Origin: Nonomuraea jabiensis
GTDB lineage: Bacteria; Actinomycetota; Actinomycetes; Streptosporangiales; Streptosporangiaceae
Assembly (NCBI RefSeq): GCF_014204795.1
Contig: NZ_JACHMB010000001.1
Span: forward strand, 12,180,501-12,244,500
Direction of reading: 5' to 3'
DNA length: 64,000 bases
Shown in pieces: positions 15,052 to 64,000 of the stretch. The translations under genes and the position numbers were made by a program. The notes beneath the pieces were generated by a model. The model was not told where the DNA came from and searched no databases. It was given only the letters and a program-made list of their open reading frames with translations. How positions within the stretch are numbered: the stretch's first letter is position 1; each line of letters begins with the position of its first letter.

Positions 15052-15106
15052 CCGGCGATACGGGGGTGGGCACCCCCGCCCGCCCCCGTACGACGAGGAG
15101 TTCCTG

Positions 15107-15418
15107 ATGGCCGACCTGCCCTTCGACGACGAATACGCACCCCTCTACTCCCTGGGGCAGGTGGCGGAGATGCTGCAGGTCCAGCAGGCGTACCTGCGCC
15201 GGCTCGACCAGCACGACGTCATAAGCCCGAGCCGGTCCAGCGGCGGCCAGCGGCGCTACTCCCGGCGCGACATCATGATCGTCCAGCACGTCACGCGGAT
15301 GGCCGACGAGGGCATGACGCTCATCGCCATCCGCCGCATCCTGGAGCTGGAGCGAGAGCTCACCGAGCTGCGCCGGCAGCTGAAGGAGGCCCGGGAGAGG
15401 ATCCGCGAGCTGGAGTGA
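15107..15418 (+). CDS. HspR-like MerR family regulator
   Basis: 103 residues, with GAGGAG before the ATG. The winged helix is YSLGQVAEMLQVQQAYLRRL with DQHDVISPSRSSGGQRRYSR, followed by a C-terminal coiled coil ELERELTELRRQLKEARERI. Length and sequence match the HspR branch of MerR, repressors of chaperone operons. It lies directly after hsp20 on the same strand and probably represses its own operon. I could not find a clean HAIR element (CTTGAGT-N7-ACTCAAG) upstream; the sequence near 14560-14585 has only a loose repeat (CTAACCT and AGGTTGG). Confidence 0.85.
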   Translation: MADLPFDDEYAPLYSLGQVAEMLQVQQAYLRRLDQHDVISPSRSSGGQRRYSRRDIMIVQHVTRMADEGMTLIAIRRILELERELTELRRQLKEARERIRELE

Positions 15419-15478
15419 CGGCGACATGCCCCTCGGTCGTCCACGACGTCGAAACCGGGCAGCGACACGGCCCCCGCG

Positions 15479-16420: not shown

Positions 16421-16448
16421 GGGGATCCCCGTCCACGTAGGATGCCAG

Positions 16449-16512
16449 AGATAACGGAGGGTCCTCCGCTATCTCTGACTCACTATAGAGCAATACCGGA
16501 GGTTCCTCCGGT
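16449..16512 (-). promoter_or_regulatory. Promoter region with two matching operators for the AKR gene
   Basis: Operator 1 is a 26-bp imperfect palindrome at 16449-16474 with core CGGAGGGTCCTCCG; operator 2 is an 18-bp palindrome at 16495-16512 with core CCGGAGGTTCCTCCGG. Their centres are 42 bp apart, four helical turns. A -10-like TATAGT on the minus strand lies between them at 16482-16487, so operator 2 would cover the -35 region and operator 1 the transcription start, a repressor arrangement. Confidence 0.7.
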
Positions 16513-16535
16513 TCCGTGCGGCCAGCGGGTTGTTG

Positions 16536-16623
16536 TGCGCTCGGGGGGAGTCGAACCCCCACGCTCCTTGCGGAGCACTGGATCCTGGGTCCAGCGCGTC
16601 TGCCGAAGTTCCGCCACGAGCGC
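16536..16623 (-). tRNA. tRNA-Leu (CAG)
   Basis: The acceptor arms GCGCTCG/CGAGCGC pair fully, with a long variable arm (TGCTCCGCAAGGAGCG) and a T arm GGGGGTTCGACTCCCCC. The anticodon loop is CCCAGGA inside CTGGA/TCCAG, giving anticodon CAG. Position 33 is C instead of the near-universal U. CCA is not encoded. Confidence 0.88.
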
Positions 16624-16740
16624 CTGGGCCCCGGGCCTGGCTGGCGTCGGCCTGCCCGGGGCGAGGGCCGGGTCCGGCCGGGGGGCGCCATTCCCGCCGG
16701 TCAGGCCGTGGCCCGCGGCCCTGTTCTTTCAGGGCCGCTG

Positions 16741-16816
16741 TCCGAGTGGCAGGATTCGAACCTGCGGTGCTCCTGCTCCCAAGGCAGGCGGGCTGACCAA
16801 ACTGCCCCACACTCGG
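16741..16816 (-). tRNA. tRNA-Pro (TGG)
   Basis: The acceptor arms CCGAGTG/CACTCGG pair perfectly, the T arm contains GGTTCGAATCC, and the anticodon loop CTTGGGA inside CCTGC/GCAGG gives TGG with U33 and G37. Discriminator base A; no encoded CCA. Confidence 0.93.
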
Positions 16817-16853
16817 TCATCAACAAATAAGCCGCCCCGGTGCATTCCGAGAC

Positions 16854-16888
16854 GGCTTTCCGATAAGCGGATGGTTATCCGGAAAGCC
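16854..16888 (-). terminator. Stem-loop terminator after MscS gene
   Basis: GGCTTTCCGATAA at 16854-16866 pairs with TTATC and GGAAAGCC (16875-16888) with one bulged C and an 8-nt loop. It lies between the 3' end of the MscS gene and the 5' end of tRNA-Pro. Confidence 0.7.
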
Positions 16889-16984
16889 CTCGCCACAGTC
16901 GGGGGTAGCGCACTTCACTGCCTTTCTTTCGCGCGGCTGGACAATGTCCACGGTAAAGGAGTGATCGGCGGCCGTGCCACCCGA

Positions 16985-18031
16985 TTATTTCTGCGCGCGC
17001 GTTTCCGGGGTCTCCACGCGGAAGTGGGGCAGGGACTCGGGATAGTTGTCCCTGACGTAGTTGACCAGGAACTCGCGTACGTCGCACTTGAGGTCCCACG
17101 AGGAAGGCGAGTCCGCGGCGCTCATCAGGGCGCGCAGTTCCACCAGGCCGTTCGGCAGCACGTCGGTGACCTGGAGCGTCCAGTCCTTCTGGTCCCACAG
17201 CGGGTTGCCCTGCAGGAACTCGTACAGCGCCTCCCGGAGTTTGGGCACCGGCACCGACCAGTCCACGCGCAGGAACACGACGGCGAGGACGCGGCTGCCG
17301 TGCCGGGTCCAGTTCTGGAACGGGTTCTGGGTGAAGTACGACACCGGCAGGACCAGGCGGCGCTCGTCCCACAGGCGCACGACGACGTAGGTGAGCGTCA
17401 GCTCCTCGATCCGGCCCCATTCGTTCTCCACGACGACCACGTCGTCGAGCCGGAGCGCGTCGCTGAAGGCCAGCTGGAGGCCGGCCAGGGCGTTGCCGAT
17501 GGTGGGCTGGGCGGCGATGCCGACGATGGCGCCGGCGATGCCCGCCGAGGCCAGGATGCCCGCGCCGAGCGCGCGTACCTGGGGGAACGAGAAGAGCACC
17601 GCCCCGATCGCGATCACGACGATGACCGCGGCAGCGATGCGGCGGACCAGCCCGATCTGGGTCATGATCCGCCGCGCCCGGCGGTTGCGCTCCCCTTCGA
17701 CCCGCACCAGCCGCTCGAGCACCACGTCCGTCAGCGCGTAGTTGGCCTGCACGATCAGCCAGGTGACGGCGCCTATGGTGACGATGCCGAGCGCCCGGTT
17801 CACGGTCGCCGCGGCGTCCTGGCTCACCCCCAGCGTGCCCGGCGCGAACACCAGGTTGAAGGCCGCCACGGCCGCCACCGTGAACGCGGGCCACGTGCAG
17901 TGCTCCACCAGGTGCCGGGCGAACGCCCATTTGCGTCCGACCCTGTTCAGCACCCTCCGTACCAACTCAACCAGGAGGATCGAGCCGATCACCGCGATCA
18001 CGAGAATCAGCCAGCCTGCTGGAGACTGCAC
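16985..18031 (-). CDS. MscS-family mechanosensitive channel
   Basis: 348 residues. Hydrophobic segments lie near 7-24, 43-62, 80-98 and 125-150. The pore-lining TM3 is Gly/Ala-rich (ALGAGILASAGIAGAIVGIA) and leads into the MscS beta domain (PTIGNALAGLQLAFSDALRL, DVVVVENEWGRIEELTLTYV, VRLWDERRLVLPVSYFTQNP). The C-terminal region is a typical mixed alpha/beta cage. Function: tension-gated osmolyte release at the inner membrane. It ends at a hairpin and is followed, about 170 bp on, by tRNA-Pro. The preceding nrdB gene on the same strand ends 17 bp upstream, so some read-through is possible. Confidence 0.9.
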   Translation of the reverse strand: MQSPAGWLILVIAVIGSILLVELVRRVLNRVGRKWAFARHLVEHCTWPAFTVAAVAAFNLVFAPGTLGVSQDAAATVNRALGIVTIGAVTWLIVQANYALTDVVLERLVRVEGERNRRARRIMTQIGLVRRIAAAVIVVIAIGAVLFSFPQVRALGAGILASAGIAGAIVGIAAQPTIGNALAGLQLAFSDALRLDDVVVVENEWGRIEELTLTYVVVRLWDERRLVLPVSYFTQNPFQNWTRHGSRVLAVVFLRVDWSVPVPKLREALYEFLQGNPLWDQKDWTLQVTDVLPNGLVELRALMSAADSPSSWDLKCDVREFLVNYVRDNYPESLPHFRVETPETRAQK

Positions 18032-18048
18032 GCCTATGCCCCCAATGT

Positions 18049-19044
18049 CTAGAAAGTTTCGTCAAAGGTCACATTGCCCTCAACTGCCACTTGATACGCA
18101 GAGACGCGCCGTTCGAAGAAATTGGCCAGCTCCTGCACGTCCTGCAACTCCATGAACGCGAAGGGGTTGGCCGAGCCGTACCTCGTGGGCAGGCCCAGCC
18201 TGGCCAGCCGCTGGTCGGCCACGTATTCCAGGTATTGGCGCATCTGTGCGACCCCCATGCCGGGCATGCCGTCCCCGCACAGGTCCTCGGCGAAGGCCAG
18301 CTCGGCGGCCACGGCCTCCTCCACCATGAGGGTAACCTCTTTGCCCAGCTCATCGTCGAAAAGGTCCGGTTCCTCGGCCCGCACGGTCTCCACCACGCTG
18401 AAGGCGAACTCCATGTGCATGGACTCGTCGCGGAAGACCCAGTTCGTCCCGGTGGCCAGGCCGCCGAGCAGGCCCCGGGAGCGGAACCAGTAGACGTACG
18501 CGAAGGCCCCGTAGAAGAACAGGCCCTCGATGCAGGCGGCGAAGCAGATGAGGTTGAGCAGGAAGCGCCGCCGGTCCTCCCGCGTCTCCAGGCGCTGCAG
18601 CTCGTTGATCGAGTCGATCCACTTGAAGCAGAATTCCGCCTTGTCGCGGATCGAGGGGATGTGGTCGATCGCGGCGAAGGCCTTCACCCTTTCGGCGGGA
18701 TCCGGCAGGTAGGTGTCCAGCAGCGTCAGGTAGAACTGGACGTGCACGGCCTCCTCGAACAGCTGCCTGCTGAGGTAAAGGCGCGCCTCGGGGGCGTTGA
18801 CGTGCTGGTAGAGGTTGAGCACGAGGTTGTTGGCCACGATGGAGTCGCCGGTGGCGAAGAACGCGACCAGCCGGTTGATCAGGTGCCGCTCCTGCGGCGT
18901 CATCCTGGCCAGGTCGGCGAGGTCGGAGTGGAGGTCCACCTCCTCGACGGTCCACGTGTTGCGGATGGCCGCGCGGTAGCGTTCGTAGAAGTCCGGGTAG
19001 CGCATGGGCCGGAGGGTGAGGTCCATGCCGGGGTTGAGCAGCAC
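18049..19044 (-). CDS. nrdB: Class Ia ribonucleotide reductase, beta subunit
   Basis: 331 residues. The GTG at 19044 has AAGGAGA 8 nt upstream and is only 10 bp after nrdA, so the two genes form one operon. Di-iron ligands appear in the expected order: SDLADL (Asp), RQLFEEAVHVQFY (Glu and His), ACIEGLFFYGAF (Glu) and WVFRDESMHMEF (Glu, His). The C-terminal tail VEGNVTFDETF provides the peptide that docks on the alpha subunit. The enzyme supplies the tyrosyl/di-iron radical for NDP reduction and depends on oxygen. It is controlled together with nrdA by the upstream B12 riboswitch. Confidence 0.95.
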   Translation of the reverse strand: MLLNPGMDLTLRPMRYPDFYERYRAAIRNTWTVEEVDLHSDLADLARMTPQERHLINRLVAFFATGDSIVANNLVLNLYQHVNAPEARLYLSRQLFEEAVHVQFYLTLLDTYLPDPAERVKAFAAIDHIPSIRDKAEFCFKWIDSINELQRLETREDRRRFLLNLICFAACIEGLFFYGAFAYVYWFRSRGLLGGLATGTNWVFRDESMHMEFAFSVVETVRAEEPDLFDDELGKEVTLMVEEAVAAELAFAEDLCGDGMPGMGVAQMRQYLEYVADQRLARLGLPTRYGSANPFAFMELQDVQELANFFERRVSAYQVAVEGNVTFDETF

Positions 19045-52728: not shown

Positions 52729-54143
52729 AAGGCATCCCGCTCACCAAGGACTTCGCCAACGGCGGCGTCTCGTTCTGGTACCGGCAGATCGGCCTGCCGG
52801 ACCGGCGTCCCCCGCTGCCGGGGCCGCGCTCGTACGACGTGGCCATCGTCGGCGGCGGCTACACCGGCCTGTGGACCGCGTACTACCTGAAGAAGGCCGA
52901 GCCGGGGCTGCGGATCGCGATCCTGGAGAAGGAGTTCGCCGGGTTCGGGGCGTCGGGGCGCAACGGCGGGTGGCTGTCGGCGGAGTTCGCCGGGTCGCGC
53001 AAGCGGTACGCCAAGGCGCGCGGCCGGCAGGCGATGATCGACCTGCAGCACGCGATGTTCGACGCCGTGGACGAGGTCATCGAGGTGACCCGCGAGGAGG
53101 CCATCGACGCCGACATCCACAAGGGCGGCCTCGTCCACGTCGCGACGAACCCGGCCCAGCGGCGCCGGCTGCGCGCGGAGCTCGACGACCTGCGCACCTG
53201 GGGGTACGGCGAGAGCGACCTGCGGCTGATGGACCGCGACGAGCAGCGCGAGCGCGTGCAGGTGGCGGGCACCCTGGAGGCCACCTACTCGCCGCACTGC
53301 GCCCGCATCCAGCCCGCCAAGCTGGCCGTCGGCCTGGCCGAGGCGGTCGCCCGGCTCGGCGTGGACATCTTCGAGGACACCACGGTCACGAAGATCGTCC
53401 CGCGGCGGGACGGCAGCCAGGCGGCGGCGGTCACCACGCGCGGGGCGGTCACGGCGGACTACGTCATCCGCGCCACCGAGGGCTTCACCGCCTCGCTGGC
53501 CGGCCAGCACCGGCAGTGGCTCCCGATGAACAGCTCCATGATCGTCACCGAGCCGCTGCCGCCCGAGGTGTGGAAGCACATCGGCTGGCAGGGCAACGAG
53601 CTGCTCGGCGACGAGGCGCACGCCTACATCTACGCGCAGCGCACCGCCGACGACCGCATCGCGATCGGCGGGCGGGGCGTGCCCTACCGGTACGGCTCGC
53701 GTACCGACCTGCGGGGCGCCACCCAGCCGCAGACGGTCGCGCTGCTGTGGCGGATGCTGGTCAAGCTCTTCCCCGCGGCGGCGGACGCGCGGATCCAGCA
53801 CTCCTGGTGCGGCGTGCTGGGCGTGCCGCGCGACTGGTGCTCCACGGTCCACCTGGACCACGCGAGCGGCCTCGGCTGGGCGGGCGGCTACGTGGGCAGC
53901 GGCGTCACGACCACGAACCTGGCCGGCCGCACCCTGCGCGACCTGGTGCTGCGCCAGGACACCGAGCTGACGTCCCTGCCCTGGGTGGGCCGCCAGGTGC
54001 GCCAGTGGGAGCCCGAGCCGCTGCGGTGGACGGGGGTGCAGCTCATCTACGCGCTCTTCCGCGCCGCCGACCGGCAGGAGAACGACCACGGCACCACGAC
54101 GTCGCCGTTCGCGCGGGTGGCGAACCTGATCTCCGGCCGCTGA
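52725..54143 (+). CDS. FAD-dependent amine oxidoreductase (PuuB-like)
   Basis: 472 residues from the ATG at 52725 (overlap ATGA with potA). The DAO fold shows YDVAIVGGGYTGLWTAYYLK, the second dinucleotide strand EKEFAGFGASGRNGGWLSAE (GASGRNGG is the hallmark of the PuuB/OrdL group) and the late FAD segment GLGWAGGYVGSGVTTTNLAG. It probably oxidises gamma-glutamylputrescine or a related polyamine taken up by the Pot system. No PuuA glutamylation gene is next to it, so the exact substrate is inferred. Confidence 0.9.
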   Translation: MKGIPLTKDFANGGVSFWYRQIGLPDRRPPLPGPRSYDVAIVGGGYTGLWTAYYLKKAEPGLRIAILEKEFAGFGASGRNGGWLSAEFAGSRKRYAKARGRQAMIDLQHAMFDAVDEVIEVTREEAIDADIHKGGLVHVATNPAQRRRLRAELDDLRTWGYGESDLRLMDRDEQRERVQVAGTLEATYSPHCARIQPAKLAVGLAEAVARLGVDIFEDTTVTKIVPRRDGSQAAAVTTRGAVTADYVIRATEGFTASLAGQHRQWLPMNSSMIVTEPLPPEVWKHIGWQGNELLGDEAHAYIYAQRTADDRIAIGGRGVPYRYGSRTDLRGATQPQTVALLWRMLVKLFPAAADARIQHSWCGVLGVPRDWCSTVHLDHASGLGWAGGYVGSGVTTTNLAGRTLRDLVLRQDTELTSLPWVGRQVRQWEPEPLRWTGVQLIYALFRAADRQENDHGTTTSPFARVANLISGR

Positions 54144-54156
54144 CGCGCCTCACCCT

Positions 54157-54179
54157 CCGGAGCGCGCTCAGCGCTCCGG
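54157..54179. terminator. Bidirectional stem-loop between convergent genes
   Basis: CCGGAGCGC pairs perfectly with GCGCTCCGG around the 5-nt loop GCTCA. It is placed between the convergent ends of the amine oxidoreductase and the LigD-type polymerase. A short direct repeat GGCCATCCGGGG follows twice. Confidence 0.75.
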
Positions 54180-54209
54180 GCCATCCGGGGGCCATCCGGG
54201 GGCCAGAGG

Positions 54210-55412
54210 TCAGCGCTCCGGGGGCCCGGCGCCGCGCCAGGGGTCGTAGTCAACCTCCAGCGGCTCCTGCGGCGGCCGCTCGGCCTCCGGCACGTGCTGG
54301 AGGTTGACCCGGATGCGATACCACACGCTGCTGCGCCCCCGCATGCCGTCGACCAGCACGTCGGCGGGCTCCAGCCGGGCCGCGACCTCCGGGTGGCGGG
54401 CCTTCCACCGCTCGAACCCGGCCAGCGCCTCCTCCTTGTGCTCCGCCCGCGCGATCTCGATGACGGGCATCGTCTGCTGCCTGCGCCCGCTGCCCTTGGG
54501 CGGCTTGGGCGCCGGGCCGAGCTCCTCGGCCAGCTCCAGCAGCGAGTCGAGCGAGCCGGGGTGCAGGTCCATGTCCTCCCACGGATCGCCGGCCTCGGCC
54601 AGCCGCTTGGGCACGGAGTCGATCGTGAACGCCTCGGGGCGGCAGCCGGGCACCTCGTCCCAGGTCAGCGGCGTCGAGACGCGGGCGTCGGGCACGGCCC
54701 GCACGGAGTAGGCGGAGGCCACGGTGCGGTCGTAGGCGTTCTGGTTGAAGTCGACGAACACGCCGTGCCGCTCCTCCTTCCACCACCGGCTGGTGGCCAG
54801 CTCGGGCGCGCGCCGCTCGACCTCGCGGGCCACCGTCTCGGCGGCCTTGCGCACCTTGGCGAACGGCCAGCGCCGCTCGATGCGGGCATAGACGTGAAAC
54901 CCCCGCGACCCCGACGTCTTGGGCCAGGCGACCAGCCCGTGGTCCGCCAGCACCTCGCGCGCCACCTGCGCGGTGGCCAGCACGTCGGCCCACTCGACGC
55001 CCGGCACCGGGTCGAGGTCGATGCGCAGCTCGTCGGGCCTGGACAGGTCGTCGGCGCGCACCGGGTGGGGGTTGAGGTCGACGCACCCGAGGTTGACCAC
55101 CCACAGCAGCTGGGCCAGGTCGGTGCAGACGACCTCCTCCGCGCTCAGCCCCGAGCGGTATTTCAGCTCGGCCACCTCGATCCAGTCGGGCCGCTTGGCC
55201 GGGGCGCGCTTCTGGAAGAACGCCTCCTGCTCGATGCCGTGCACGAACCGCTTGAGCACCATCGGCCGCCCGTGGACGCCCCGCAGCGCCGCCTCGCCCA
55301 CGGCCTGGTAGAAGCGGATCAGGTCGAGCTTGGTGTGGCCGGACTGCGGGAAGACCACCTTGTCGGGGCTGGTGATGCGGACCTCGCGACCCGCGACCTC
55401 GATGTCAGGCAT
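54210..55412 (-). CDS. Stand-alone LigD-type primase-polymerase
   Basis: 400 residues from the ATG at 55412. The archaeo-eukaryotic primase fold of LigD polymerase domains is clear: EVRITSPDKVVFPQSGHTK, LDLIRFYQAVGEAALRGVHG, PMVLKRFVHGIEQEAFFQK, the catalytic DxD in ELRIDLDPVPGVEWADVLA, KTSGSRGFHVYARIERRWP (SxGxxGxH) and DFNQNAYDRTVASAYSVRA. The domain adds ribo- or deoxynucleotides at DNA ends in NHEJ. There is no ligase or nuclease domain and no Ku gene nearby. About 110 further C-terminal residues (IEIARAEHKEEALAGFERWK) form an extension I do not recognise. Confidence 0.92.
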   Translation of the reverse strand: MPDIEVAGREVRITSPDKVVFPQSGHTKLDLIRFYQAVGEAALRGVHGRPMVLKRFVHGIEQEAFFQKRAPAKRPDWIEVAELKYRSGLSAEEVVCTDLAQLLWVVNLGCVDLNPHPVRADDLSRPDELRIDLDPVPGVEWADVLATAQVAREVLADHGLVAWPKTSGSRGFHVYARIERRWPFAKVRKAAETVAREVERRAPELATSRWWKEERHGVFVDFNQNAYDRTVASAYSVRAVPDARVSTPLTWDEVPGCRPEAFTIDSVPKRLAEAGDPWEDMDLHPGSLDSLLELAEELGPAPKPPKGSGRRQQTMPVIEIARAEHKEEALAGFERWKARHPEVAARLEPADVLVDGMRGRSSVWYRIRVNLQHVPEAERPPQEPLEVDYDPWRGAGPPER

Positions 55413-55444
55413 ACGGTCACGATACGCGGGAGCACCGACAAGGC

Positions 55445-58400
55445 TCAGGGCGCCAGCTCGGCGCCGCGGGCGCGGCTGCGCGACTCCAGGTAGGCCAGGC
55501 CGAGCCGCCGGTGCCGGGCGATGGCCGCCCGGTTGTGCCCGAGCGCCTGCTCCGTACGCCCGAGCCGGAGCGCGAGCTCGGCCAGCACGTCGTGCACGCA
55601 GCCCAGGGCCCCGCTGCCCGTGCCCAGGACGATGGGCTGGTCGGCGATCGGCAGCAGCCGCTCGTACATCTCCCCGGGGTCGGGGGTGCCGAGCTGCGCG
55701 GCCACGAGCCCCCAGACCGGGAAGAAGAAGTCGGCCGACCAGTCCTCCCGCAGGTCCACCCCCCACCGTTCGAGGAGCCGGCGCGCCTGCTCGGTGCGGC
55801 CGACGTCCAGGGAGGCCAGGATGGCGAGCGGGCGTACCAGACCCATGAGCGGGCGGTCGCCCGCGGCCACCAGCTCGTCCAGCAGCTCCGCCACCCGGCC
55901 CTCACCGCGCCGGCAGGTGTAGAGGACGCCGAGGCGGCGGGCCTCCTGGCCCCACAGGCTCGCCCCGAAGGAGATCTTGGGGAAGTGCTCGGCCAGCGCC
56001 TCCGCCTCCGCCCACCGGCCGTGCAGGGCGTGGTCGGCGGTCTGCGCGACGCGGACCATGGCCTCCAGCTCGGGCCGGGCGACCTCGTGCAGCAGCTGCT
56101 CGCAGCGGGCCAGGTCCCTGCTCCACTCGGCCAGCTCGCCCGCGCGCAGCAGGCACGACATGCGCAGCACCCGCGCCACCAGCCTGGCCTCCCTGGGCAG
56201 GCCGGGCACGGCCAGCATCTCCTCGGCCGCCGCCAGCCGCTCGGGGTTGCGGCCGGGTACGAAGCTCGCGATCAGGTAGTTGTTGAGCGCCCTGGCCAGC
56301 AGCATGGGGTCGCCGGAGCGGCGGGCCAGGCCGACCGCGTCGAGCGCCAGCCGCTCGCCCTCGGCGCGCCGCGGGCCGTAGTGCAGCTCGATGCCGAGCG
56401 TGCCCAGGAGCGCGGCCCTGGACCGGTCGTCGAGGTCGCCCGCCAGGAGGTCCTCCAGGATCGCGACCATGTCCTCGTCCACGACGCCGTACGGGCGCCA
56501 GTTCCACACCGACAGGCCGCCGAAGACCGACACCGCCGCCACCAGCGCGTCCCGGTCGCCGAGCCGCTGGGCCTGGGCGACGGCCTCGGTCAGGTCGCGG
56601 TAGGCGCCTTCGGCGTCGCCCGTGGTGCGGCGGGCCTGGCCCAGCTCGGTGAGCACGCGGCAGCGCTCGGGCGAGTCGCCGGGCGGCAGGTGGTCGAGCG
56701 CCAGCTCCCACAGCTGCACGGCCTCCTGGTAGCCGTGGCGCTGCGCGGCCTGCGCGGCGGCCCGGGTGGCGTACGTGACCGCCTTGGGCGCGCCGCCCAG
56801 CCGGGCCGCGGCGGCGAAGTGGCCGGCCAGGATCGCCGGGTCGGCGCCGGGCAGGGTCTCCAGGTGCCCGGCGGCCCGCAGGTGCAGGCGGGCGCGGTCG
56901 AGCCGGGTGAGTCCCTGGTCGAGCGCCTGCCGTACGAGGGCGTGGGAGAAGCGGTAGTCGGCGGCCCCGGTCAGCGGCTGGGTGAGCAGGCCGGCGGCCA
57001 GCGCGGGCTCCAGGTGCGACATGACCTCCTCGACGGGGCGGTCCACGAGGGCGGCCAGCAGGTCCAGGTCCACCTCCCGGCCCGCGACCGCGGCGGCCCC
57101 GAGCAGGTCCCGGGTGGGCTCGGGCAGGCGGGCCAGGCGGCGTTCGATGACGTCGCGGGCGCCGGGCGGGACGAGGTGGCGCTCGCGTTCGGGCAGGCGG
57201 AGCAGCTCGGTCAGGTAGAACGGGTTGCCGCCCGAGCGGTCGAGCAGCTCCTGCGGGTCGGCCGCCACGTCGCGCAGGCGCAGGTAGTCGCGCACGCCCG
57301 AGGCGTCGAACGGCGCCAGCGGCAGCCGGCGGCCCTCCCTGGCCAGCGCGCCCAGGGTCTCGCGCAGCTGCTCGGGGTGGTCGCCCGGTTCGGGCCTGAG
57401 CGTGGCCACGACGAGCGCGGAGGTCCTGGCCAGCTCGCCGGCGACGTGGCCGAGCAGCCTCAGGGAGGAGGCGTCGGCCCAGTGCAGGTCCTCCAGCACC
57501 ACGAGCAGGGGGCCGGTCCGCAGCTCCGCCAGCACGGCGTCGTACAGGTCGAACAGCTCGGCCTGCGGGGACGGCGGGATCAGGCCCGCGCGGGTCCACG
57601 GCCAGAACGCGGGGGCGGTGCCGCCGTCGAGGCAGCGGCCCCACTCCACCCGGAAGCCCCTGGCCGTGGCCAAGTCGGCGACGGCCCTGGCCAGGCTCGT
57701 CTTGCCGATGCCCGCCTCGCCGGTGACCAGCGCCAGCCCGCCCCTGCCGTGCCTGGCCCGAGCCAGCAGCTCCTCCAGGACCCGCAGCTCGTCCTCCCTG
57801 GCCACGAGCCTGCCGGAGCCCGGGCCCGCGGGGACGGGTGCCGGAACGGGGTCGGGTGCCGGGCTGGGCTTGGGGGCCGGGTCGAGTTCGGGCGCCTGCT
57901 CGAACACCGCCTGCTCCAGCCGCCTCAGCTCGGGCCCCGGCTCGATGCCCAGCTCGCCGGCGAGCAGGGCGCGTACCTTGCGCAGCGCCGCGAGCGCGTC
58001 GGCCTGGCGGCCCGCCCGGTACAGCCCGAGCACCAGCAGCCCCCACGCCCGCTCCCGGTACGGGTGCGCCTCCGTCAGCGCCTCCAGGTCGGGCACGCTG
58101 GCCTCGCCGAGCGCCAGCCGGGCCGCCAGCCGGTCCTCCTCGGCCACGAGCCGCAGCTCCTCCAGCCGCGCCGACGCCGCCGGCGCCAGATCGGGGAACT
58201 CGGCCAGCGGCTCCCCCCGCCACAGCGCGAGCGCCCGGTCGAGCGTCCGCGCGCCCTCCGCGTGCCGCCCCTGCCTGACCAGGCGCGCCCCGTCGGCGGC
58301 CCACGCGGCGAAGCGGCCCACGTCGGTCTGGCCGGGCGTGACGTCCAGCACGTAGCCGGGCTCGCGGGTGAGCAGCACCCGGGGCGGCGTGCGCGGCTTG

Positions 58401-58633
58401 CGGTCCGGCTCCAGCACCCGCCGCAGATGCGAGACGTACGCCTGCAGCGTCGCCGTCGCCTTGGCCGGCGCCTCCCCCGCCCACAGCTCCTCGATCAGCC
58501 GGTCGAGCGGCACGACGCGGCCCGGTTCGAGCGCCAGCCTGGCCAGGACCGCCCGCTGCTTGCGGGTGCCGAGGTCGAGCCGGTTGCCGTCGCCGTCGTC
58601 CACCTCAAGCGGACCGAACAGTCTGAACTCCAC
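55445..58633 (-). CDS. BTAD/AfsR-like regulator with AAA ATPase and TPR-like repeats
   Basis: 1062 residues from the GTG at 58633 (VEFRLFGPLEV, with GGGG just upstream); the frame stays open far upstream but that part overlaps the divergent gene. Residues about 5-95 are an OmpR-like winged helix (RKQRAVLARLALEPGRVVPL, LQAYVSHLRRVLEPDRK). About 100-245 is the BTAD domain (ARLEELRLVAEEDRLAARLA, ALAALRKVRALLAGELGIEP). A Pro-rich linker precedes an ATPase near 300 (VTGEAGIGKTSLARAVADL; LLVVLEDLHWAD). The rest is helical TPR-like repeats. Such SARP-type activators switch on nearby or secondary-metabolism genes. Confidence 0.92.
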   Translation of the reverse strand: MEFRLFGPLEVDDGDGNRLDLGTRKQRAVLARLALEPGRVVPLDRLIEELWAGEAPAKATATLQAYVSHLRRVLEPDRKPRTPPRVLLTREPGYVLDVTPGQTDVGRFAAWAADGARLVRQGRHAEGARTLDRALALWRGEPLAEFPDLAPAASARLEELRLVAEEDRLAARLALGEASVPDLEALTEAHPYRERAWGLLVLGLYRAGRQADALAALRKVRALLAGELGIEPGPELRRLEQAVFEQAPELDPAPKPSPAPDPVPAPVPAGPGSGRLVAREDELRVLEELLARARHGRGGLALVTGEAGIGKTSLARAVADLATARGFRVEWGRCLDGGTAPAFWPWTRAGLIPPSPQAELFDLYDAVLAELRTGPLLVVLEDLHWADASSLRLLGHVAGELARTSALVVATLRPEPGDHPEQLRETLGALAREGRRLPLAPFDASGVRDYLRLRDVAADPQELLDRSGGNPFYLTELLRLPERERHLVPPGARDVIERRLARLPEPTRDLLGAAAVAGREVDLDLLAALVDRPVEEVMSHLEPALAAGLLTQPLTGAADYRFSHALVRQALDQGLTRLDRARLHLRAAGHLETLPGADPAILAGHFAAAARLGGAPKAVTYATRAAAQAAQRHGYQEAVQLWELALDHLPPGDSPERCRVLTELGQARRTTGDAEGAYRDLTEAVAQAQRLGDRDALVAAVSVFGGLSVWNWRPYGVVDEDMVAILEDLLAGDLDDRSRAALLGTLGIELHYGPRRAEGERLALDAVGLARRSGDPMLLARALNNYLIASFVPGRNPERLAAAEEMLAVPGLPREARLVARVLRMSCLLRAGELAEWSRDLARCEQLLHEVARPELEAMVRVAQTADHALHGRWAEAEALAEHFPKISFGASLWGQEARRLGVLYTCRRGEGRVAELLDELVAAGDRPLMGLVRPLAILASLDVGRTEQARRLLERWGVDLREDWSADFFFPVWGLVAAQLGTPDPGEMYERLLPIADQPIVLGTGSGALGCVHDVLAELALRLGRTEQALGHNRAAIARHRRLGLAYLESRSRARGAELAP

Positions 58634-58687
58634 GAACCCCAAGTCAACCTCAACTCCTCCGCAAATGCCGAAACGCACACTTGATCC

Positions 58688-59968
58688 ATGAACGAGCTGA
58701 AGAACGTGATGAACGGCCGCGTGCTCCTCCCCGGCGACGAGGGTTTCGACGAGGCGCGCAAGCCCTGGAACCTGGCCGTCGACCAGCAGGTGCGCGCGGT
58801 CGTCGAAGCGGCCGACGCCGACGACGTGGCGGCCACGGTCGGCTACGCCCGCCTGCACGGGCTGGCGGTGACCGCGCAGCCGAGCGGCCACGGCGCCTCC
58901 GGCGACACCGACGGCACGATCCTGCTGCGGACCGGCGGCCTGGGCGGAGTGGCGATCGAGAACGGGGTGGCGCGCGTCGGCGCGGGTGTGAAGTGGGGCG
59001 AGGTGCTGGCGGCGGCGAGCCCGCTCGGGCTGACCGGCCTCGCGGGCAGCTCCCCCGTGGTCAGCGTGACCGGGTACACGCTGGGTGGCGGGCTGAGCTG
59101 GTTCAGCAGGAAGTACGGCTTCGCCGCCGACACCGTGCGGGCCTTCGACGCGGTGGACGCCGAGGGCCGGCGGATCCGGGTGACGGCCGAGCGGGACCCC
59201 GAGCTGTTCTGGGCGCTGCGGGGCGGCGGCGGTGACTTCGCGGTCGTGACGGCGATGGAGTTCGACCTGAGCCCCGCCCCCTTCCTGTACGGCGGGCGGA
59301 TCACGTGGCCGATCGAGCGGGCGCCCGAGGTGCTGGCCGCTTACCGCGAGGTCACCGCGAGCGCGCCGGACGAGCTGACGGTCTGGTACGACCTGCTGCA
59401 GATCCCCGGCGGCCCGGGGTTCGTCATGGTCGACAGCACCTACCTGGGCCGGGACCCGGGCGCGCTGCTGCGGCCCTTCGAGCTGATCGGCGGCGCGATC
59501 GGCGACACCCGGCGGCTGCTGCCGGTGGCCGAGCTGGGCTCCATCTGCGACGAGCCCACCGATCCCCAGCCCGGCACCAGCCGGTGCGAGCTGCTGACCG
59601 GGCTCGACGACCAGGTGGCCGGCGTGCTGCTGGGCGAGCCGATCGACCCGATGATCAGCGTGCAGATCCGGCACCTGGGCGGGGCCCTGTCCCGGCCCGC
59701 CGACGGGGGCGGCGCCGCGGGGCACCTGGACGAGCCGTACCTGGTCTACGCGATCGGCCGGCCCACCGAGGCCACGGCCGAGCGTCTGGAGCGGCTGGGC
59801 AAGGCGCTGGTTCCGTTCAGCAGCGGGCGCAAGCCGTACACGATGCTGCACGGCGGCGAGCAGGCCGCGGCGGCGTTCCCGCGCGAGTCGCTGGCCCGGC
59901 TCCGCGACCTCAAGCGCTCCCGCGACCCGCACGGCGTCATCCGGGCCAACTTCCCCGTGCTGGGGTAG
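58688..59968 (+). CDS. FAD-binding oxidoreductase of the berberine-bridge-enzyme type
   Basis: 426 residues. The PCMH/FAD_binding_4 domain is shown by RAVVEAADADDVAATVGYAR, AVTAQPSGHGASGDTDGTIL (His suited to 8-alpha covalent FAD) and LGLTGLAGSSPVVSVTGYTL GGG. The usual second anchoring Cys is Ser here, so single covalent attachment is expected. The C-terminus RDPHGVIRANFPVLG replaces the full BBE motif. Relatives oxidise alcohols or sugars. It is divergent from the BTAD regulator with a gap of only 54 bp and is the obvious candidate target. The substrate is unknown. Confidence 0.9.
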   Translation: MNELKNVMNGRVLLPGDEGFDEARKPWNLAVDQQVRAVVEAADADDVAATVGYARLHGLAVTAQPSGHGASGDTDGTILLRTGGLGGVAIENGVARVGAGVKWGEVLAAASPLGLTGLAGSSPVVSVTGYTLGGGLSWFSRKYGFAADTVRAFDAVDAEGRRIRVTAERDPELFWALRGGGGDFAVVTAMEFDLSPAPFLYGGRITWPIERAPEVLAAYREVTASAPDELTVWYDLLQIPGGPGFVMVDSTYLGRDPGALLRPFELIGGAIGDTRRLLPVAELGSICDEPTDPQPGTSRCELLTGLDDQVAGVLLGEPIDPMISVQIRHLGGALSRPADGGGAAGHLDEPYLVYAIGRPTEATAERLERLGKALVPFSSGRKPYTMLHGGEQAAAAFPRESLARLRDLKRSRDPHGVIRANFPVLG

Positions 59969-59974
59969 CCCGTT

Positions 59975-60862
59975 TCACCCGATGGCCCGGGCCAGGAAAT
60001 CGCGGATCAAGGGGACGATCTCGCCGAGGCTGGTCTCCAGCGCCCAGTGGCCGGCATCGAGCACGTGCAGCTCGGCGTCCGGCAGGTCGCGCAGGTACGC
60101 CCTGGCCGCCCCCTCGGGCATGTAACCGTCGTGCGGGCCCCACACGATCAGCGTCGGCGGACGGTGCTCCCGCAGGTACGCCTGCTCCTTGGGGAACCAT
60201 TCCAGCGTCGTCGCCTGGTCCTCGAAGAGGCCCACGACGTTCGCGCGGCGCCGCGAGGTGTTCATCAGCGACCAGTGCAGCCGCCACAGGTCCGGGCTCA
60301 CCCGTTCGGCCAGATGGTCCGGCAGCTCGCCGGCGAACTCGTCGCGGAAGCCCTCCTCCGTGACGTTCGCGGCGAGCCTGGCCCGGCCCTCGTCCGTCGG
60401 ATCGCTCCAGAACTCCTTGAGCCAGGCGTACTTCGGCCCCAGCTGGTCCTCGTAGATGTCGCCGTTCTGGATGACGAGCGCGGTGACCCGTTCGGGGGCG
60501 CGCATGGCCAGCCGCAGCCCGAACTGGGAGCCGTAGTCGTGCAGGTAGATGGCGTACCGCGACAGTCCCATCACGTGCGTGAAGCGTTCGAGGAAGTCGG
60601 CGTAGCCGGTGAAGGTGTAGGAGAAGTGCTCGGGTGTCGCGCTGTAGCCGAAGCCCGGCAGGTCGGGCGCGATCAGGCGCCAGCGGTCGCCGAGGGCGGG
60701 CAGGAGGTTGCGGAACGCGTACGAGGAGCAGGGGTAGCCGTGCGGCAGCAGGAAGATCGGCGCGTCGCGCGGGCCGGCCTCGCGGTAGAAGACCTCGATC
60801 CCGTCGACGTCGATCCTCCGATGCGCGACCGCGGCGGGCGTGCTGTGTCGGTTTCCGGTCAT
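59975..60862 (-). CDS. Alpha/beta hydrolase, epoxide hydrolase/dehalogenase-like
   Basis: 295 residues. The oxyanion motif FLLPHGYPCSSYAFRNLLPA (HGxP), the nucleophile elbow IYLHDYGSQFGLRLAMRAPE with Asp in place of Ser (as in epoxide hydrolases and haloalkane dehalogenases), the acid region LIVWGPHDGYMPEGAARAYL and the catalytic His in VLDAGHWALETSLGEI are visible. It is probably cytoplasmic, as no signal is seen. Its end is only 6 bp from the convergent flavoenzyme. Confidence 0.9.
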   Translation of the reverse strand: MTGNRHSTPAAVAHRRIDVDGIEVFYREAGPRDAPIFLLPHGYPCSSYAFRNLLPALGDRWRLIAPDLPGFGYSATPEHFSYTFTGYADFLERFTHVMGLSRYAIYLHDYGSQFGLRLAMRAPERVTALVIQNGDIYEDQLGPKYAWLKEFWSDPTDEGRARLAANVTEEGFRDEFAGELPDHLAERVSPDLWRLHWSLMNTSRRRANVVGLFEDQATTLEWFPKEQAYLREHRPPTLIVWGPHDGYMPEGAARAYLRDLPDAELHVLDAGHWALETSLGEIVPLIRDFLARAIG

Positions 60863-60910
60863 GGAACAAGGGCCTACCCCGCAGGCGCGGCATGGTGTCC
60901 TGCGCAGTGC

Positions 60911-61660
60911 CTAGAGGTCGCCGAAGTCTCCGTGGCGGCCCGCGCCCGCGGCGAAGCGGGCGGCGCCGCCCACGGCGTCGGGCATCGAGACGAGCCCGTG
61001 GCGCAGCTCGTTCCGCATCGCCTCCGCCTCGCTCAGCCCCTCCTGCTCCAGCGCCGACAGCCGGTCGCCGCGCAGGCAGGTCTGCGGGAAGCGGGCGATC
61101 TCGCGGGCCAGCTCCTCGGCCTGCCGCCGGGCGGTGCCGTCGGGCACGAGCCGGTTGGCCAACCCCCACTCGTACGCCTCCCGCCCGTCGACGGGCCGGC
61201 CGGTGAGGATCATGTCCATCGCCCGCGAGGCGCCGACGAGCCGGGGCAGCCGTACGGTGCCGCCGTCGATGAGCGGCACTCCCCACCTGCGGCAGAACAC
61301 CCCGAAGACCGCCCCCTCCTCGGCCACCCGAAGGTCGCACCAGAGGGCCAGCTCCAGCCCGCCCGCGACGGCGTGCCCGGCCACGGCGGCGATGACCGGC
61401 TTCGACAGGCGCATCCTGGTAGGCCCCATCGGCCCGTCGCCGTCCTCGCCGACATGGTTGTCGAGCGCCTTCAGGTCGGCGCCCGCGCAGAACGTGCCGC
61501 CCTCGCCCCACAGCACCGCCACGGCGGCGTCGGACCCCTCGAAGTCACGGAACGCGCCCGCCAGCGCGTCGGCCGTCTTGCGATCGACCGCGTTACGCGC
61601 CTCCGGCCTGCTGATCACCACGGTGGTGACCGGTCCCTCGCGCTCCACGCGTACGCTCAT
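60911..61660 (-). CDS. Enoyl-CoA hydratase/isomerase family protein
   Basis: 249 residues of the crotonase fold: MSVRVEREGPVTTVVISRPE, GTFCAGADLKALDNHVGEDG (oxyanion strand), KPVIAAVAGHAVAGGLELAL and the active-site segment GVFCRRWGVPLIDGGTVRLP. The second catalytic position is Gly-rich (IDGGT), as in several enoyl-CoA hydratases of uncertain specificity. It is in line with the hydrolase gene 48 bp downstream. The role in fatty-acid or aromatic CoA turnover is family-level inference. Confidence 0.9.
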   Translation of the reverse strand: MSVRVEREGPVTTVVISRPEARNAVDRKTADALAGAFRDFEGSDAAVAVLWGEGGTFCAGADLKALDNHVGEDGDGPMGPTRMRLSKPVIAAVAGHAVAGGLELALWCDLRVAEEGAVFGVFCRRWGVPLIDGGTVRLPRLVGASRAMDMILTGRPVDGREAYEWGLANRLVPDGTARRQAEELAREIARFPQTCLRGDRLSALEQEGLSEAEAMRNELRHGLVSMPDAVGGAARFAAGAGRHGDFGDL

Positions 61661-61732
61661 GCGGCCCTCCTCGTGCTCGGGAACGGGCCGAGCGTACGTC
61701 CAAGCCTGGGTCTCCGGCCAGCAACCCCACCG

Positions 61733-62494
61733 TCAGTGGTTGCCGAGAGAATGCAGGCGGACAGGTTCCGTCAAAGCGGCCTTGGCACCCTCGAAGTCCG
61801 CCAGACGGATGGCGACGGTCGCTACCGCCAGCCGTTCGGGGAGCACGGTCGCGAATTTGAGTCCGGTGACGGCCCGACGGTCGACGTCCGGGAGAACGAG
61901 GAGTTCTCCGTTGCCGGTGTTCTCTTTCGCCGCCTTCCATACAGCCGGGGTGAGGTCTTGGCGGAGCCGAACCGCGAAGTCGGTCGACCGTTGCACCGGG
62001 TCGGCGATCGAGGGCAGCGTGGCGGCCAGGGTCGCGTTGGCACGGTATCCGGCCCAGGTCCACCAGCGCACGTCGGCGCCATCCCTCGTGATCAGAGTTC
62101 CGCCGGGGTGCACGACGGCGGGGGCTTCTTCGCGCCAGTCCGCCAGGCATGCTTGCGCCCGGCGGGTGAGCGACACCGGTGGGTCGGCGCCGAGCAGGAC
62201 CTCTCGCATCGCGCGCGTCAGGGCGAACGGCAGACCCGCGACGCCGCTGCCGGTCCACTTGGCCACTCCACCGCGGTCAGCCGGTTCGACAAAGGCTCGT
62301 TTGCGCGTCCAGTCGATGAAAGTGACCCGCCAGCTCTGGCCACCCAGCAGCAGCAGTCGCGGGCCGCATTCACAAGTGTGCGAGATCACCCGGATGCGTG
62401 GTGGCCGAGGGGTGGGGTCGTACCAAGTCAGCTTGACGTGGCCGGGCAGGGGCGACTCGACGTGCGGACCATGGAAGTCGGGGATCTTCGACAT
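61733..62494 (-). CDS. Chimeric protein: small regulatory N-terminus joined to Lhr-type helicase tail
   Basis: 253 residues from the ATG at 62494, one base after the stop of the ATPase gene upstream, with AGGAAAGG nearby. Residues about 1-47 (MSKIPDFHGPHVESPLPGHV, KLTWYDPTPRPPRIRVISHT, CECGPR) resemble the small companion proteins found between ATPase and XRE genes in actinomycetes. From about residue 48 the text changes to the C-terminal region of an Lhr-type DEAD/DEAH helicase (LLLLGGQSWRVTFIDWTRKR, AFVEPADRGGVAKWTGSG, VWKAAKENTGNGELLVLPDV). No helicase motor motifs exist. It is either a decayed fusion or a new domain combination. Confidence 0.55.
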   Translation of the reverse strand: MSKIPDFHGPHVESPLPGHVKLTWYDPTPRPPRIRVISHTCECGPRLLLLGGQSWRVTFIDWTRKRAFVEPADRGGVAKWTGSGVAGLPFALTRAMREVLLGADPPVSLTRRAQACLADWREEAPAVVHPGGTLITRDGADVRWWTWAGYRANATLAATLPSIADPVQRSTDFAVRLRQDLTPAVWKAAKENTGNGELLVLPDVDRRAVTGLKFATVLPERLAVATVAIRLADFEGAKAALTEPVRLHSLGNH

Positions 62495-62495
62495 G

Positions 62496-63002
62496 TCACA
62501 CGGTCCTTTCCTCAAGTTCTCGACGAGGGTCCTGCACGTGATGTCGATGGGGGACATCCGCGATGTCCACTGCGGCAGGGGCCTGGACAGGCAGCTCGAA
62601 CCAGACGGTCCGGCCGAACGAGCGCCTTCTGACTCCCCATTTCGTCGCCACGGCCGCCAAGATCTGAAGTCCTCGTCCGCCGGTCTCGAATGGGTCGTCA
62701 CGAAGTCGCGGCCCCGACCACCACCCCTGGTCCTTCACTTCGATACGGATCCGGTCGGCGCCGAGCCACAGGCGGACTCGAAATGACCCCCGTTTCCAGC
62801 GACCGGACATGGTGTGCTTCATCGCGTTGGCGGCGAGCTCGGTGACCAGGAGCCGCAGATCCTCCAGAAGATTCTCATCGTCAGCGGCCTCCGGCAGTGC
62901 CATAACGAGCCAATGAGCAGCATAAATCCGTACATCACGGATTATCTGAGGGCACCCAGGAAACCGCATTGCGCCGATGAGTTTCATTCCGAGTGAAGAC
63001 AT
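62496..63002 (-). CDS. RsbW-like ATP-binding protein (HATPase_c)
   Basis: 168 residues from the ATG at 63002 (MSSLGMKLIGAMRFPG); a start at 63023 is possible. The GHKL ATPase fold has the N box in LLVTELAANAMKHTMSGRWK, the G1 box in RIEVKDQGWWSGPRLRDD and G2 in FETGGRGLQILAAVATKWGV. Stand-alone proteins of this type act as anti-sigma kinases or signalling switches and are abundant in actinomycetes, often next to XRE-DUF5753 regulators, as here (divergent gene at 63221). Confidence 0.88.
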   Translation of the reverse strand: MSSLGMKLIGAMRFPGCPQIIRDVRIYAAHWLVMALPEAADDENLLEDLRLLVTELAANAMKHTMSGRWKRGSFRVRLWLGADRIRIEVKDQGWWSGPRLRDDPFETGGRGLQILAAVATKWGVRRRSFGRTVWFELPVQAPAAVDIADVPHRHHVQDPRRELEERTV

Positions 63003-63220
63003 ATTTATCACCCATACCCCCATTAGCCCGACATGATGATGCCAGCATTGATCCTGCTGGGCTCTGTTATGAGCGCTTGCGAATCATCCATCTCCGCAAG
63101 CCCCTTCAAACAATGCCTGCGACGAGCTACATTGTCTTGCGAAATAATCCCAGAGCGGTCCCAGACTACAACTGGCAACAAACCAGAAGAGCTGGAATGG
63201 ACTTGGTTACGGGAGGCGTG

Positions 63221-64000
63221 ATGCCAGCACCCAAGGAGCTTGACCCAACCGCCAGCCCAGCGGCACATTTCGGTGCCGATCTACGCAAATACCGATATGC
63301 CGCTAAATGGACTCAGGAACAGCTCGCCGAGCGCATCGGCTACAGCAAGAGCCGTATCGGCAATGTAGAACGCGGAGACGAGAACCCCACGCGCGAGCTG
63401 ATCGAGCTCTGCGAAGAGGCACTTGGCCTCAACGGCCCACTGCTCTCCCACTGGCCGGCCATCAGCGGCAACCGGATGCCCGATTGGTTCCGGCAGTGGC
63501 CGCCGATCGAGCGGAAAGCCGATCAGCTCCTCACCTGGGCCCCGCTCATCGTGCCCGGACTGGTACAGACGGTGGAGTACGCGCGTGCGATCTTCGAGGG
63601 CGAGCCTCACACGACCCCTCAGCAGGTCGAAGACGCGGTCGAGGCCCGGATGGAGCGACAATCCATATTCGATCGGCCGAATCCCCCTCAATTCCTTGCT
63701 GTGATAGACGAGGGCGTCCTGTATCGTCCGATTGGAGACGAGTTCGTAACCCACCGCCAGCTAGAGCACCTGATCACTTTGGCCGAGAACAAGTGGTTCA
63801 CCGTCCAACTACTCCCGTACGCAGCCCGGTGTACGGCAGTGCTGGTGGGCCCAGCTCTCTTGGCGCAGCAGAACGGAGTGCCGATCGCCGCCTACGTCGA
63901 ATCAGCCGTCCATGGTCGCGTCGTTGACTCCACCAGCGAGATCAAGCGACTCGTGGACCGACTCGAACTCATACGCAGCGCGGCGCTCCCTGAGTATCTG
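63221..64000 (+). CDS. XRE family regulator with DUF5753, 3' end cut by window
   Basis: The ATG at 63221 follows GGGAGG by 5 nt; the frame stays open to the window end, giving 260 residues without a stop. The HTH is FGADLRKYRYAAKWTQEQLA, ERIGYSKSRIGNVERGDENP. The DUF5753 domain follows: DWFRQWPPIERKADQLLTWA, PLIVPGLVQTVEYARAIF, RMERQSIFDRPNPPQFLAVI, DEGVLYRPIG and VQLLPYAARCTAVLVG. These regulators typically pair with small DUF397 proteins or ATP-binding proteins (e.g. WhiJ/BldB-type systems in Streptomyces). No DUF397 gene is visible yet; it may lie just past the window. Relatively AT-rich codons at the 5' end suggest recent arrival or a different history. Confidence 0.9.
   Translation, partial: MPAPKELDPTASPAAHFGADLRKYRYAAKWTQEQLAERIGYSKSRIGNVERGDENPTRELIELCEEALGLNGPLLSHWPAISGNRMPDWFRQWPPIERKADQLLTWAPLIVPGLVQTVEYARAIFEGEPHTTPQQVEDAVEARMERQSIFDRPNPPQFLAVIDEGVLYRPIGDEFVTHRQLEHLITLAENKWFTVQLLPYAARCTAVLVGPALLAQQNGVPIAAYVESAVHGRVVDSTSEIKRLVDRLELIRSAALPEYL

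What the first reader, a model, noticed from the sequence alone, without database searches (positions are those of the whole stretch)
61733..62494. Chimera of a small ATPase-linked protein and an Lhr helicase tail
The first 47 residues look like the short protein normally encoded after RsbW-like ATPases in XRE/DUF5753 loci; the remaining 200 look like the C-terminal domain of an Lhr-type helicase without its motor. The join falls near CECGPR. Either a deletion fused two genes or a motorless helicase domain was recruited into a signalling locus.
Basis: partly seen in the sequence, partly recalled or inferred. Interest (0 to 1): 0.52.

Follow-up and report, generated by a model that had tools for sequence, protein, structure and literature searches.

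The report
Defence-helicase tail fused to small gene
In one soil bacterium, the second half of a small gene of unknown function has been swapped for the tail end of a phage-defence helicase gene, giving a readable hybrid gene; it looks like a recent accident of DNA repair rather than a conserved protein, though the hybrid could still be made and fold in part.

Summary
The chimera is real. The 253-aa ORF (62494-61733, minus strand) has three parts. Residues 1-44/46 are the N-terminal half of a ~93-aa family of unknown function. About 200 residues are the end of BrxHI, the Lhr-like helicase of type 2 BREX phage defence (PADLOC BrxHI: 190 bits on residues 42-248, profile 490-695 of 698). The last ~5 residues and the stop match former intergenic DNA. 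A relative (G002, ~95% identical around the locus) keeps the intact 93-aa gene; its 259 bp stand where the window has 614 bp of helicase DNA. So neighbours were not fused by a deletion: a foreign fragment replaced half a gene, with no repeat over 8 bp shared by the joins. In the window's genome no other BrxHI and no PglZ_2 or PglY was found; Ku and LigD-type genes are present. Of 341 family genomes searched, only the window's own has a match across the join. Selection cannot be shown: the event appears to postdate the split from G002 (flank dS ~0.09), and an unselected frame would often still be open. Most likely this is end-joining capture of horizontally acquired DNA, with no established function. 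Modest interest.

The parts
62363..62494 (-). Retained 5' part of the small gene: codons 1-44 (the join lies at residues 44-46)
   Evidence: 87.9% DNA identity to the intact gene in G002 over 132 bp, 91.1% to G021 over 124 bp; aligned beside six members; 24 members found by tblastn with residues 1-46
61749..62362 (-). Captured 3' fragment of a brxHI (type 2 BREX helicase) gene, about 614 bp; counterpart of G008 BrxHI residues ~525-730
   Evidence: blastn 72-77% to helicase 3' ends in seven loci (L038-L044; L044 is itself a fragment) over 61752-62366; G002 has 259 other bases here; PADLOC BrxHI 190 bits on P0001 residues 42-248
61733..61748 (-). Former intergenic DNA that now supplies the last residues (LGNH and part of S) and the stop codon
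   Evidence: matches G002 DNA downstream of the small gene rather than brxHI
61733..62494 (-). Whole chimeric ORF, 253 aa
62496..63023 (-). HATPase_c_2 (RsbW-like) ATPase gene; its stop lies 1 nt before the chimera's ATG, with GGAAAGGA upstream, so the chimera is probably translated with it
   Evidence: Pfam HATPase_c_2 E 1.1e-13; spacing TGACATG
63197..64000 (+). XRE/DUF5753 regulator gene, divergent, running off the window; start chosen by eye, the first in-frame start is at 62993
   Evidence: DUF5753 E 2e-43, HTH_31 E 8.7e-15
60911..61660 (-). Enoyl-CoA hydratase gene, the downstream neighbour, also present in G002
   Evidence: Pfam ECH_1 E 7.1e-38; 27 differences in 750 bp to G002

Best explanation
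A recent chimeric gene made by non-homologous (illegitimate) recombination. A break in the 3' half of a small gene was healed by joining in a ~614-bp fragment from the end of a brxHI gene, from DNA that is not otherwise found in this genome and so was probably imported, with loss of ~259 bp. The fragment landed in frame (1 in 3 by chance) and reads on to a stop in former intergenic DNA. The product is probably co-translated with the upstream ATPase. It has lost the conserved second half of the small protein, and it carries 3 of the 5 predicted barrel strands plus the C-terminal domain of BrxHI, but no motor. Shown: parentage, joins, replacement, and failure to find the donor or BREX core genes in this genome. 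Inferred: end joining as the mechanism, imported donor DNA, translation, and lack of a selected function.
For: Syntenic intact locus in G002, with a 259-bp to 614-bp swap and ~95% identity on both sides. No repeat over 8 bp, direct or inverted, shared by the 120-bp stretches around the two joins. Join overlap 0-4 nt (by eye). In the window's genome a BrxHI query finds, besides this fragment, only distant helicases, the best 34-45% identical in a 1610-aa frame. No BrxHI motor at E<=1e-50 in G000 or G002. No PglZ_2 or PglY in G000 or G002. Ku, and LigD-type ligase and polymerase domains, lie side by side at 1.575-1.578 Mb. Match across the join in 1 of 341 family genomes. Precedent: end joining in Streptomyces ambofaciens with 5 insertions of 30 bp to 18.8 kb at break sites (PMC5869714, passages). 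Age: flank dS to G002 0.086-0.098; chance that an unselected frame stays open ~0.42 at 0.045 substitutions per site.
Against: The fragment's terminal branch shows strong constraint (omega 0.035 against 0.070 background; 2dlnL 2.96, not significant; 17 sequences), and only 1 of 66 invariant columns is changed. If the fusion is as young as the flanks suggest, most of that branch predates it, so this does not decide. The retained 132 bp are more diverged from G002 (87.9%, dS 0.295 on 44 codons) than the ATPase gene beside them (95.1%, dS 0.098). If that reflects an older, imported fusion, the age limit loosens: by arithmetic's rates, an unselected frame at 0.148 substitutions per site would stay open only ~6% of the time. 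In G002 two direct 8-mers occur near the breakpoints, though not at them. One assembly only; no reads seen.
Confidence: 0.75

Rival explanations
1. Functional recruitment: the BrxHI tail, a proposed DNA-binding module, now serves as the output of the ATPase/regulator locus, tethered through the small protein's N-terminal half.
For: Frame intact through both joins; stop 1 nt before start gives likely coupling to the ATPase gene; 65 of 66 columns that are invariant in 20 BrxHI tails are kept; a 2026 survey proposes that BrxHI's C-terminal domain is an auxiliary DNA-binding surface (PMC12839542, passages).
Against: Match across the join in 1 of 341 family genomes. The barrel is cut after two of its five predicted strands. 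The conserved second half of the small protein is lost. The chimera model is poor, mean pLDDT 43. No sequence relation between small protein and barrel (hhalign probability 0.1%).
Confidence: 0.12
2. Deletion between an adjacent small gene and an adjacent helicase gene.
For: Would also give an in-frame fusion of a 5' and a 3' part.
Against: In G002 the small gene is followed by the enoyl-CoA hydratase gene, as in the window, with no helicase; the insert is bounded by G002-like DNA on both sides.
Confidence: 0.03
3. Assembly or sequencing artefact: a contaminating or repeat-mediated misjoin.
For: Only one assembly is available here, and the genome's contamination estimate is 5.46%.
Against: Single-contig genome; the insert is 614 bp with DNA on both sides that follows G002 order; no close helicase copy elsewhere in the genome for a repeat to misjoin with.
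Confidence: 0.05
4. The chimera was formed in another lineage and came in whole by homologous recombination through the small gene and its flanks.
For: Divergence from G002 is raised next to the join (16 differences in 120 bp, against 0-8 per 60-bp bin elsewhere).
Against: Of the 16 differences in the retained 132 bp, 5 fit a change in G002, 4 a change in the window, 7 are unresolved. No other genome with the fusion was found.
Confidence: 0.1

Closest known systems
BrxHI, helicase of type 2 BREX (Pgl) systems
   Same: The tail aligns with the last ~200 residues of 20 BrxHI proteins at 56-83% identity (20 of the 24 loci given)
   Different: No RecA motor, no winged helix, first two predicted barrel strands missing; no PglZ_2 or PglY found anywhere in the genome
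Unnamed 91-99 aa family (H..H ... TCxC ... YELC ... RRT)
   Same: First 43-46 residues, start codon and place beside the ATPase gene
   Different: Conserved second half absent. No Pfam or NCBIfam match at E<=0.1 for the G002 member; the G021 member has two Pfam matches at E 0.05-0.1, both under cut-off
End-joining capture of DNA at breaks in Streptomyces ambofaciens (PMC5869714, passages)
   Same: DNA from elsewhere inserted at a healed break, with deleted ends and short microhomologies reported
   Different: Those inserts came from the cell's own genome after induced breaks; here the donor is not found in the genome, the event is natural, and it made an open reading frame
Lhr helicase (M. smegmatis, 5V9X)
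   Same: Best solved relative of G008 BrxHI by sequence (E 5.9e-45) and first by Foldseek (E 9.8e-24, but TM-score only 0.33)
   Different: A repair helicase (recalled); the window fragment is far closer to BrxHI
SngC (PADLOC)
   Same: Second-named family hit by BrxHI (398 bits) and by the chimera (50 bits)
   Different: BrxHI scores 1059 and 190 bits respectively

Membership tests
BrxHI helicase | SF2 motor (DEAD and Helicase_C domains) | tested here: not met
   Pfam finds DEAD and Helicase_C in the G008 protein and no family at E<=1 in the chimera
BrxHI helicase | Lhr-type C-terminal domain | tested here: met
   By sequence: 190 bits to PADLOC BrxHI, profile 490-695 of 698; 65 of 66 invariant columns kept. 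The fold itself was not confirmed: model confidence is low there
BrxHI helicase | Complete beta-barrel before the C-terminal domain | tested here: not met
   Predicted strands 502-506 and 509-514 of G008 BrxHI lie before the cut at ~527; strands 528-531, 534-542 and 547-553 are kept (block pLDDT 65-83 over 501-550). The name HAS barrel is from PMC12839542
BrxHI helicase / type 2 BREX | Operon with BrxD, PglZ, PglY | tested here: not met
   In G052 BrxD and PglZ_2 and PglY lie beside brxHI; PglZ_2 and PglY not found in the whole G000 genome. BrxD was not searched in G000
Small 91-99 aa family | N-terminal half (H..H ... TCxC) | tested here: met
   24 members found with residues 1-46; alignment with six
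Small 91-99 aa family | C-terminal half (typically YELC ... GGQ ... RRT ... LLxGxAR) | tested here: not met
   Replaced by BrxHI sequence
Small family as partner of ATPase + XRE/DUF5753 | ATPase and regulator within 1.5 kb | tested here: inconclusive
   Met at the window, G002 and G021, and both genes also lie beside the G008:C32 copy (L048); 2 of 24 scanned loci (L002-L007, L019-L025, L027-L037) have both, L027 a weak regulator match; divergent ATPases could be missed
End-joining DNA capture | No homology, repeats or transposon ends at the joins | tested here: met
   Within 60 bp on either side: no shared word over 8 bp; no DNA beyond the helicase fragment
End-joining DNA capture | Ku and LigD-type genes present | tested here: met
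   Ku E 6.2e-57; ligD_pol, 3 matches over cut-off; NHEJ_ligase_lig, 2 over cut-off
End-joining DNA capture | Event dependent on Ku/LigD | not testable with these tools
   Needs an experiment

The most novel reading that the evidence does not exclude
A tail of an anti-phage helicase, caught by end joining, has become the working output domain of an ATPase/regulator locus: a new small protein in which the small family's N-terminal half docks to the partner ATPase and the BrxHI tail binds DNA. It would be a case of a defence gene being broken up and re-used as a signalling part in a single step.
Probability: 0.1. Interest if true: 0.65.

Novelty: new member of a known kind. Interest (0 to 1): 0.36.

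Why it matters
It is a cleanly resolved natural case of gene-fragment capture in a large actinobacterial chromosome: the intact recipient locus is known in a close relative, the donor family is known (a BREX helicase), both joins are defined to within a few bases, and no donor copy was found in the genome. It fits the proposal (PMC5869714) that end joining may foster uptake of foreign DNA in such bacteria. It also warns annotation: the ORF hits the BrxHI model although no PglZ_2 or PglY was found in the genome.

Tried and rejected
Deletion between neighbouring genes: rejected by synteny with G002. Conserved fusion family: rejected; only the own genome's match spans residues 1-253 among 341 family genomes (the seven best candidates of each genome are scored), among the listed matches in 54 genus genomes (list cut after the weak ones) and among 345 order genomes, which largely repeat the family set. 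Of the 24 genome-contig loci, 12 listed query matches that begin at residue 1, 6 or 7. On testing, all 24 had helicase motor sequence upstream (in L067 and L072 the frame is broken) and none matched the small N-terminus, so I read those extensions as chance alignment. One plasmid hit, in Azospirillum oryzae, spans residues 1-247 at 32%; opened, it is a full-length BrxHI (residues 5-729, 49%) with no small-protein match.

Mobile-element insertion: no repeats over 8 bp shared by the joins and no extra DNA beyond the helicase fragment. Phage origin: no match in 50,697 phage records at E<=1. Plasmids: 24 records match at E<=1; 12 are annotated as helicases, and only the hit named above was opened. 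A DNA search of plasmids with window 61600-63100 found 3 records, the best covering 24%.

Distant homology of small protein and barrel, to explain the join: none (hhalign). Model of the chimera: mean pLDDT 43, not used. Model of BrxHI from G008: mean pLDDT 62, pTM 0.37; used only for strand positions. Test for changed selection on the fragment: no significant difference (own script, 17 sequences). The enoyl-CoA hydratase comparison was out of register and is not used; one search gives it. GC3 of the fragment (0.80) lies inside the range of 24 homologues (0.67-0.98), so it says nothing about decay. A neighbour-gene family tally was prepared but not run, because the ORF picker missed moderate-GC genes; a profile search replaced it. 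For the G002 hydrolase deletion, no shared word of 12 bases or more was found at the edges.

Papers: PMC12839542 and PMC5869714, passages only; PMC5124664, abstract and outline; others, search listings only.

Full report
WHAT IS THERE. The ORF is on the minus strand, ATG at 62494, stop at 61733, 253 residues. Its ATG lies one base after the stop of an RsbW-like ATPase gene (TGACATG), with GGAAAGGA upstream, so translation coupled to the ATPase is likely (inference). A divergent XRE/DUF5753 gene follows the ATPase gene, and an enoyl-CoA hydratase gene lies on the other side. The window's genome is one 13.17-Mb contig, and the window covers 12,180,501-12,244,500 of it. It carries no name, but its genus appears to be Nonomuraea: G008:C18 and the Nonomuraea cavernae contig NZ_BMNH01000018.1 have the same length, 154,891 bp.

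TWO PARENTS. In a search of 54 genus genomes, residues 1-47 matched short ORFs at up to 83% identity, and residues 42/44-250 matched the ends of long helicase ORFs at up to 82%. The small parent is a family of 91-99 aa; I extracted 24 members. They typically share a first half with a paired-histidine motif (HGPH in many) and TCxC, and a second half with YELC, GGQ or AGQ, RRT and a C-terminal stretch. Pfam and NCBIfam list no family at E<=0.1 for the G002 member (the ORF given carried an N-terminal extension); the G021 member has two sub-threshold Pfam matches. Six other members of the window's genome were fetched, 37-47% identical over the matched part (L002-L007). The large parent is BrxHI, the helicase of type 2 BREX: the G008 protein scores 1059 bits with PADLOC's BrxHI model, and the chimera itself 190 bits over residues 42-248 on profile positions 490-695 of 698. 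No NCBIfam model reached its cut-off for the helicase among the 25 shown. In G052 the gene follows BrxD and PglZ_2 genes (650 and 957 bits, NCBIfam), with PglY beyond; PglY of G016 scores 2245 bits.

HOW THE JOIN WAS MADE. G002 carries the same locus with the intact small gene. Window 54001-61748 and 62363-64000 match it at 94.5-96.4%, apart from a short gap near 55450 and a stretch (60118-60765) that G002 lacks. Window 61749-62362 (614 bp) stands where G002 has 259 bp. The 614 bp match helicase 3' ends almost edge to edge (61752-62366; 72-77% in seven loci). So half a gene was replaced; neighbours were not fused. At the 5' join the overlap between parents is 0-2 nt and at the 3' join at most ~4 nt, judged by eye because neither the true donor nor the pre-event recipient is known. 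The 120-bp stretches around the two joins share no direct word of 8 bases and one inverted 8-mer; the same places in G002 share two direct 8-mers and one inverted, none at the breakpoints. The last residues and the stop codon come from DNA that lies beyond the small gene in G002.

WHERE THE DONOR WENT. In the window's genome a 712-aa BrxHI query finds, besides this fragment, only distant helicases: the best is 34-45% identical and lies in a 1610-aa frame. PglZ_2 and PglY models find nothing in G000, G002, G006 or G030 and near-full-length matches in G008 and G052 (6 genomes examined). In the family, 99 of 341 genomes hold the BrxHI motor at E<=1e-50; G000 and G002 do not. On trees of 25 sequences the fragment sits among BrxHI of this actinobacterial family with weak support, so no donor species can be named. 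Import from outside is the simplest source; loss of an earlier resident BREX system is not excluded.

IS IT UNIQUE? Among 341 family genomes, 113 matched P0001 at E<=1e-20, and only the own genome's match spans residues 1-253; the others listed begin at residue 32 or later, or end by residue 47. The order-level search (345 genomes, largely the same ones) gave the same result at E<=1e-40. A scan of genome contigs gave 24 loci; all 24 have motor sequence upstream, and none has the small N-terminus. That scan uses short peptide patterns and may leave out the window's own record.

IS IT SELECTED? The flanking ATPase and XRE genes differ from G002 at dS 0.098 and 0.086. If the fusion is younger than that split, each lineage has had about 0.045 silent substitutions per site, and a frame of 201 codons under no selection would escape nonsense changes with probability ~0.42 (substitutions only). 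The fragment's branch has omega 0.035 against 0.070 for the others (2dlnL 2.96, about p 0.09; 17 sequences), but on that dating most of the branch was lived inside a whole helicase. One of 66 invariant columns is changed (R to Q at residue 53). Thus the data neither show nor exclude function. One result points to a possibly older fusion: the retained 132 bp are 87.9% identical to G002, against 95.1% for the ATPase gene; the 16 differences fall on both lineages.

WHAT THE PROTEIN COULD BE. A 2026 survey describes BrxHI as SF2 motor, winged helix, HAS-type barrel and Lhr-type C-terminal domain, the last proposed as an auxiliary DNA-binding surface (PMC12839542, passages). On a moderate model of G008 BrxHI (mean pLDDT 62) the cut at residue ~527 removes two barrel strands and keeps three; the C-terminal domain follows but is modelled with low confidence. 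The chimera's own model is too poor to use (pLDDT 43). A partly folded DNA-binding tail is possible, but unproven.

MECHANISM AND PRECEDENT. Ku, a LigD-type ligase and a LigD-type polymerase gene lie side by side at 1.575-1.578 Mb of the genome, with further copies of the last two elsewhere. In Streptomyces ambofaciens, 5 insertions of 30 bp to 18.8 kb were seen at healed breaks, and the authors suggest that end joining may foster horizontal transfer (PMC5869714, passages). The case here has the same form with a donor not found in the genome. That end joining made it is inference.

VERDICT. Observation confirmed; interpretation partly supported. A real chimera, seen in this lineage only, best read as capture of a BREX helicase gene end by non-homologous repair; function unproven and probably absent.

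Noticed in passing
L087, L088, L091-L097, L044, L049, L026: Lone 3' ends of brxHI without motor match are found in other family genomes: 12 of 15 loci examined show only the 3' part (L049, L091 and L097 are cut by contig edges). The query was the 3' end and the loci were picked for short frames, so a bias of decay towards that end is not shown.
   Followed up: partly
L087 (G077) 1793-2443, minus strand: An intact lone BrxHI tail of 216 aa with GC3 0.98 and no motor in 2.5 kb upstream, next to a PAS/GAF/SpoIIE-type phosphatase gene (named by eye from the translation). G008 brxHI is also followed by a GAF/SpoIIE-type phosphatase gene (by eye).
   Followed up: partly
window 54651-55382, minus strand: A LigD-type polymerase domain (ligD_pol, 228 bits, over its cut-off), itself an end-joining gene, lies about 6.4 kb from the chimera; one of three such matches over cut-off in the genome.
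   Followed up: partly
L044 (G006) 8259-8960: A brxHI tail beginning at about helicase residue 506, next to what looks like the C-terminal part of a serine recombinase on the other strand (named by eye).
   Followed up: no
window 60118-60765: About 650 bp of the alpha/beta hydrolase gene (named by eye) are missing from G002, leaving only short ORFs there; no shared word of 12 bases or more at the edges.
   Followed up: partly
L019 (G021) 1100-1500: The ATPase gene beside the small gene in G021 is split by an in-frame stop (two pieces of one frame hit by the ATPase profile), so the locus also decays elsewhere.
   Followed up: no
L042 (G037) 10467-18487: Four genes after brxHI look like a Wadjet (JetABCD) system, named by eye and recall only.
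   Followed up: no
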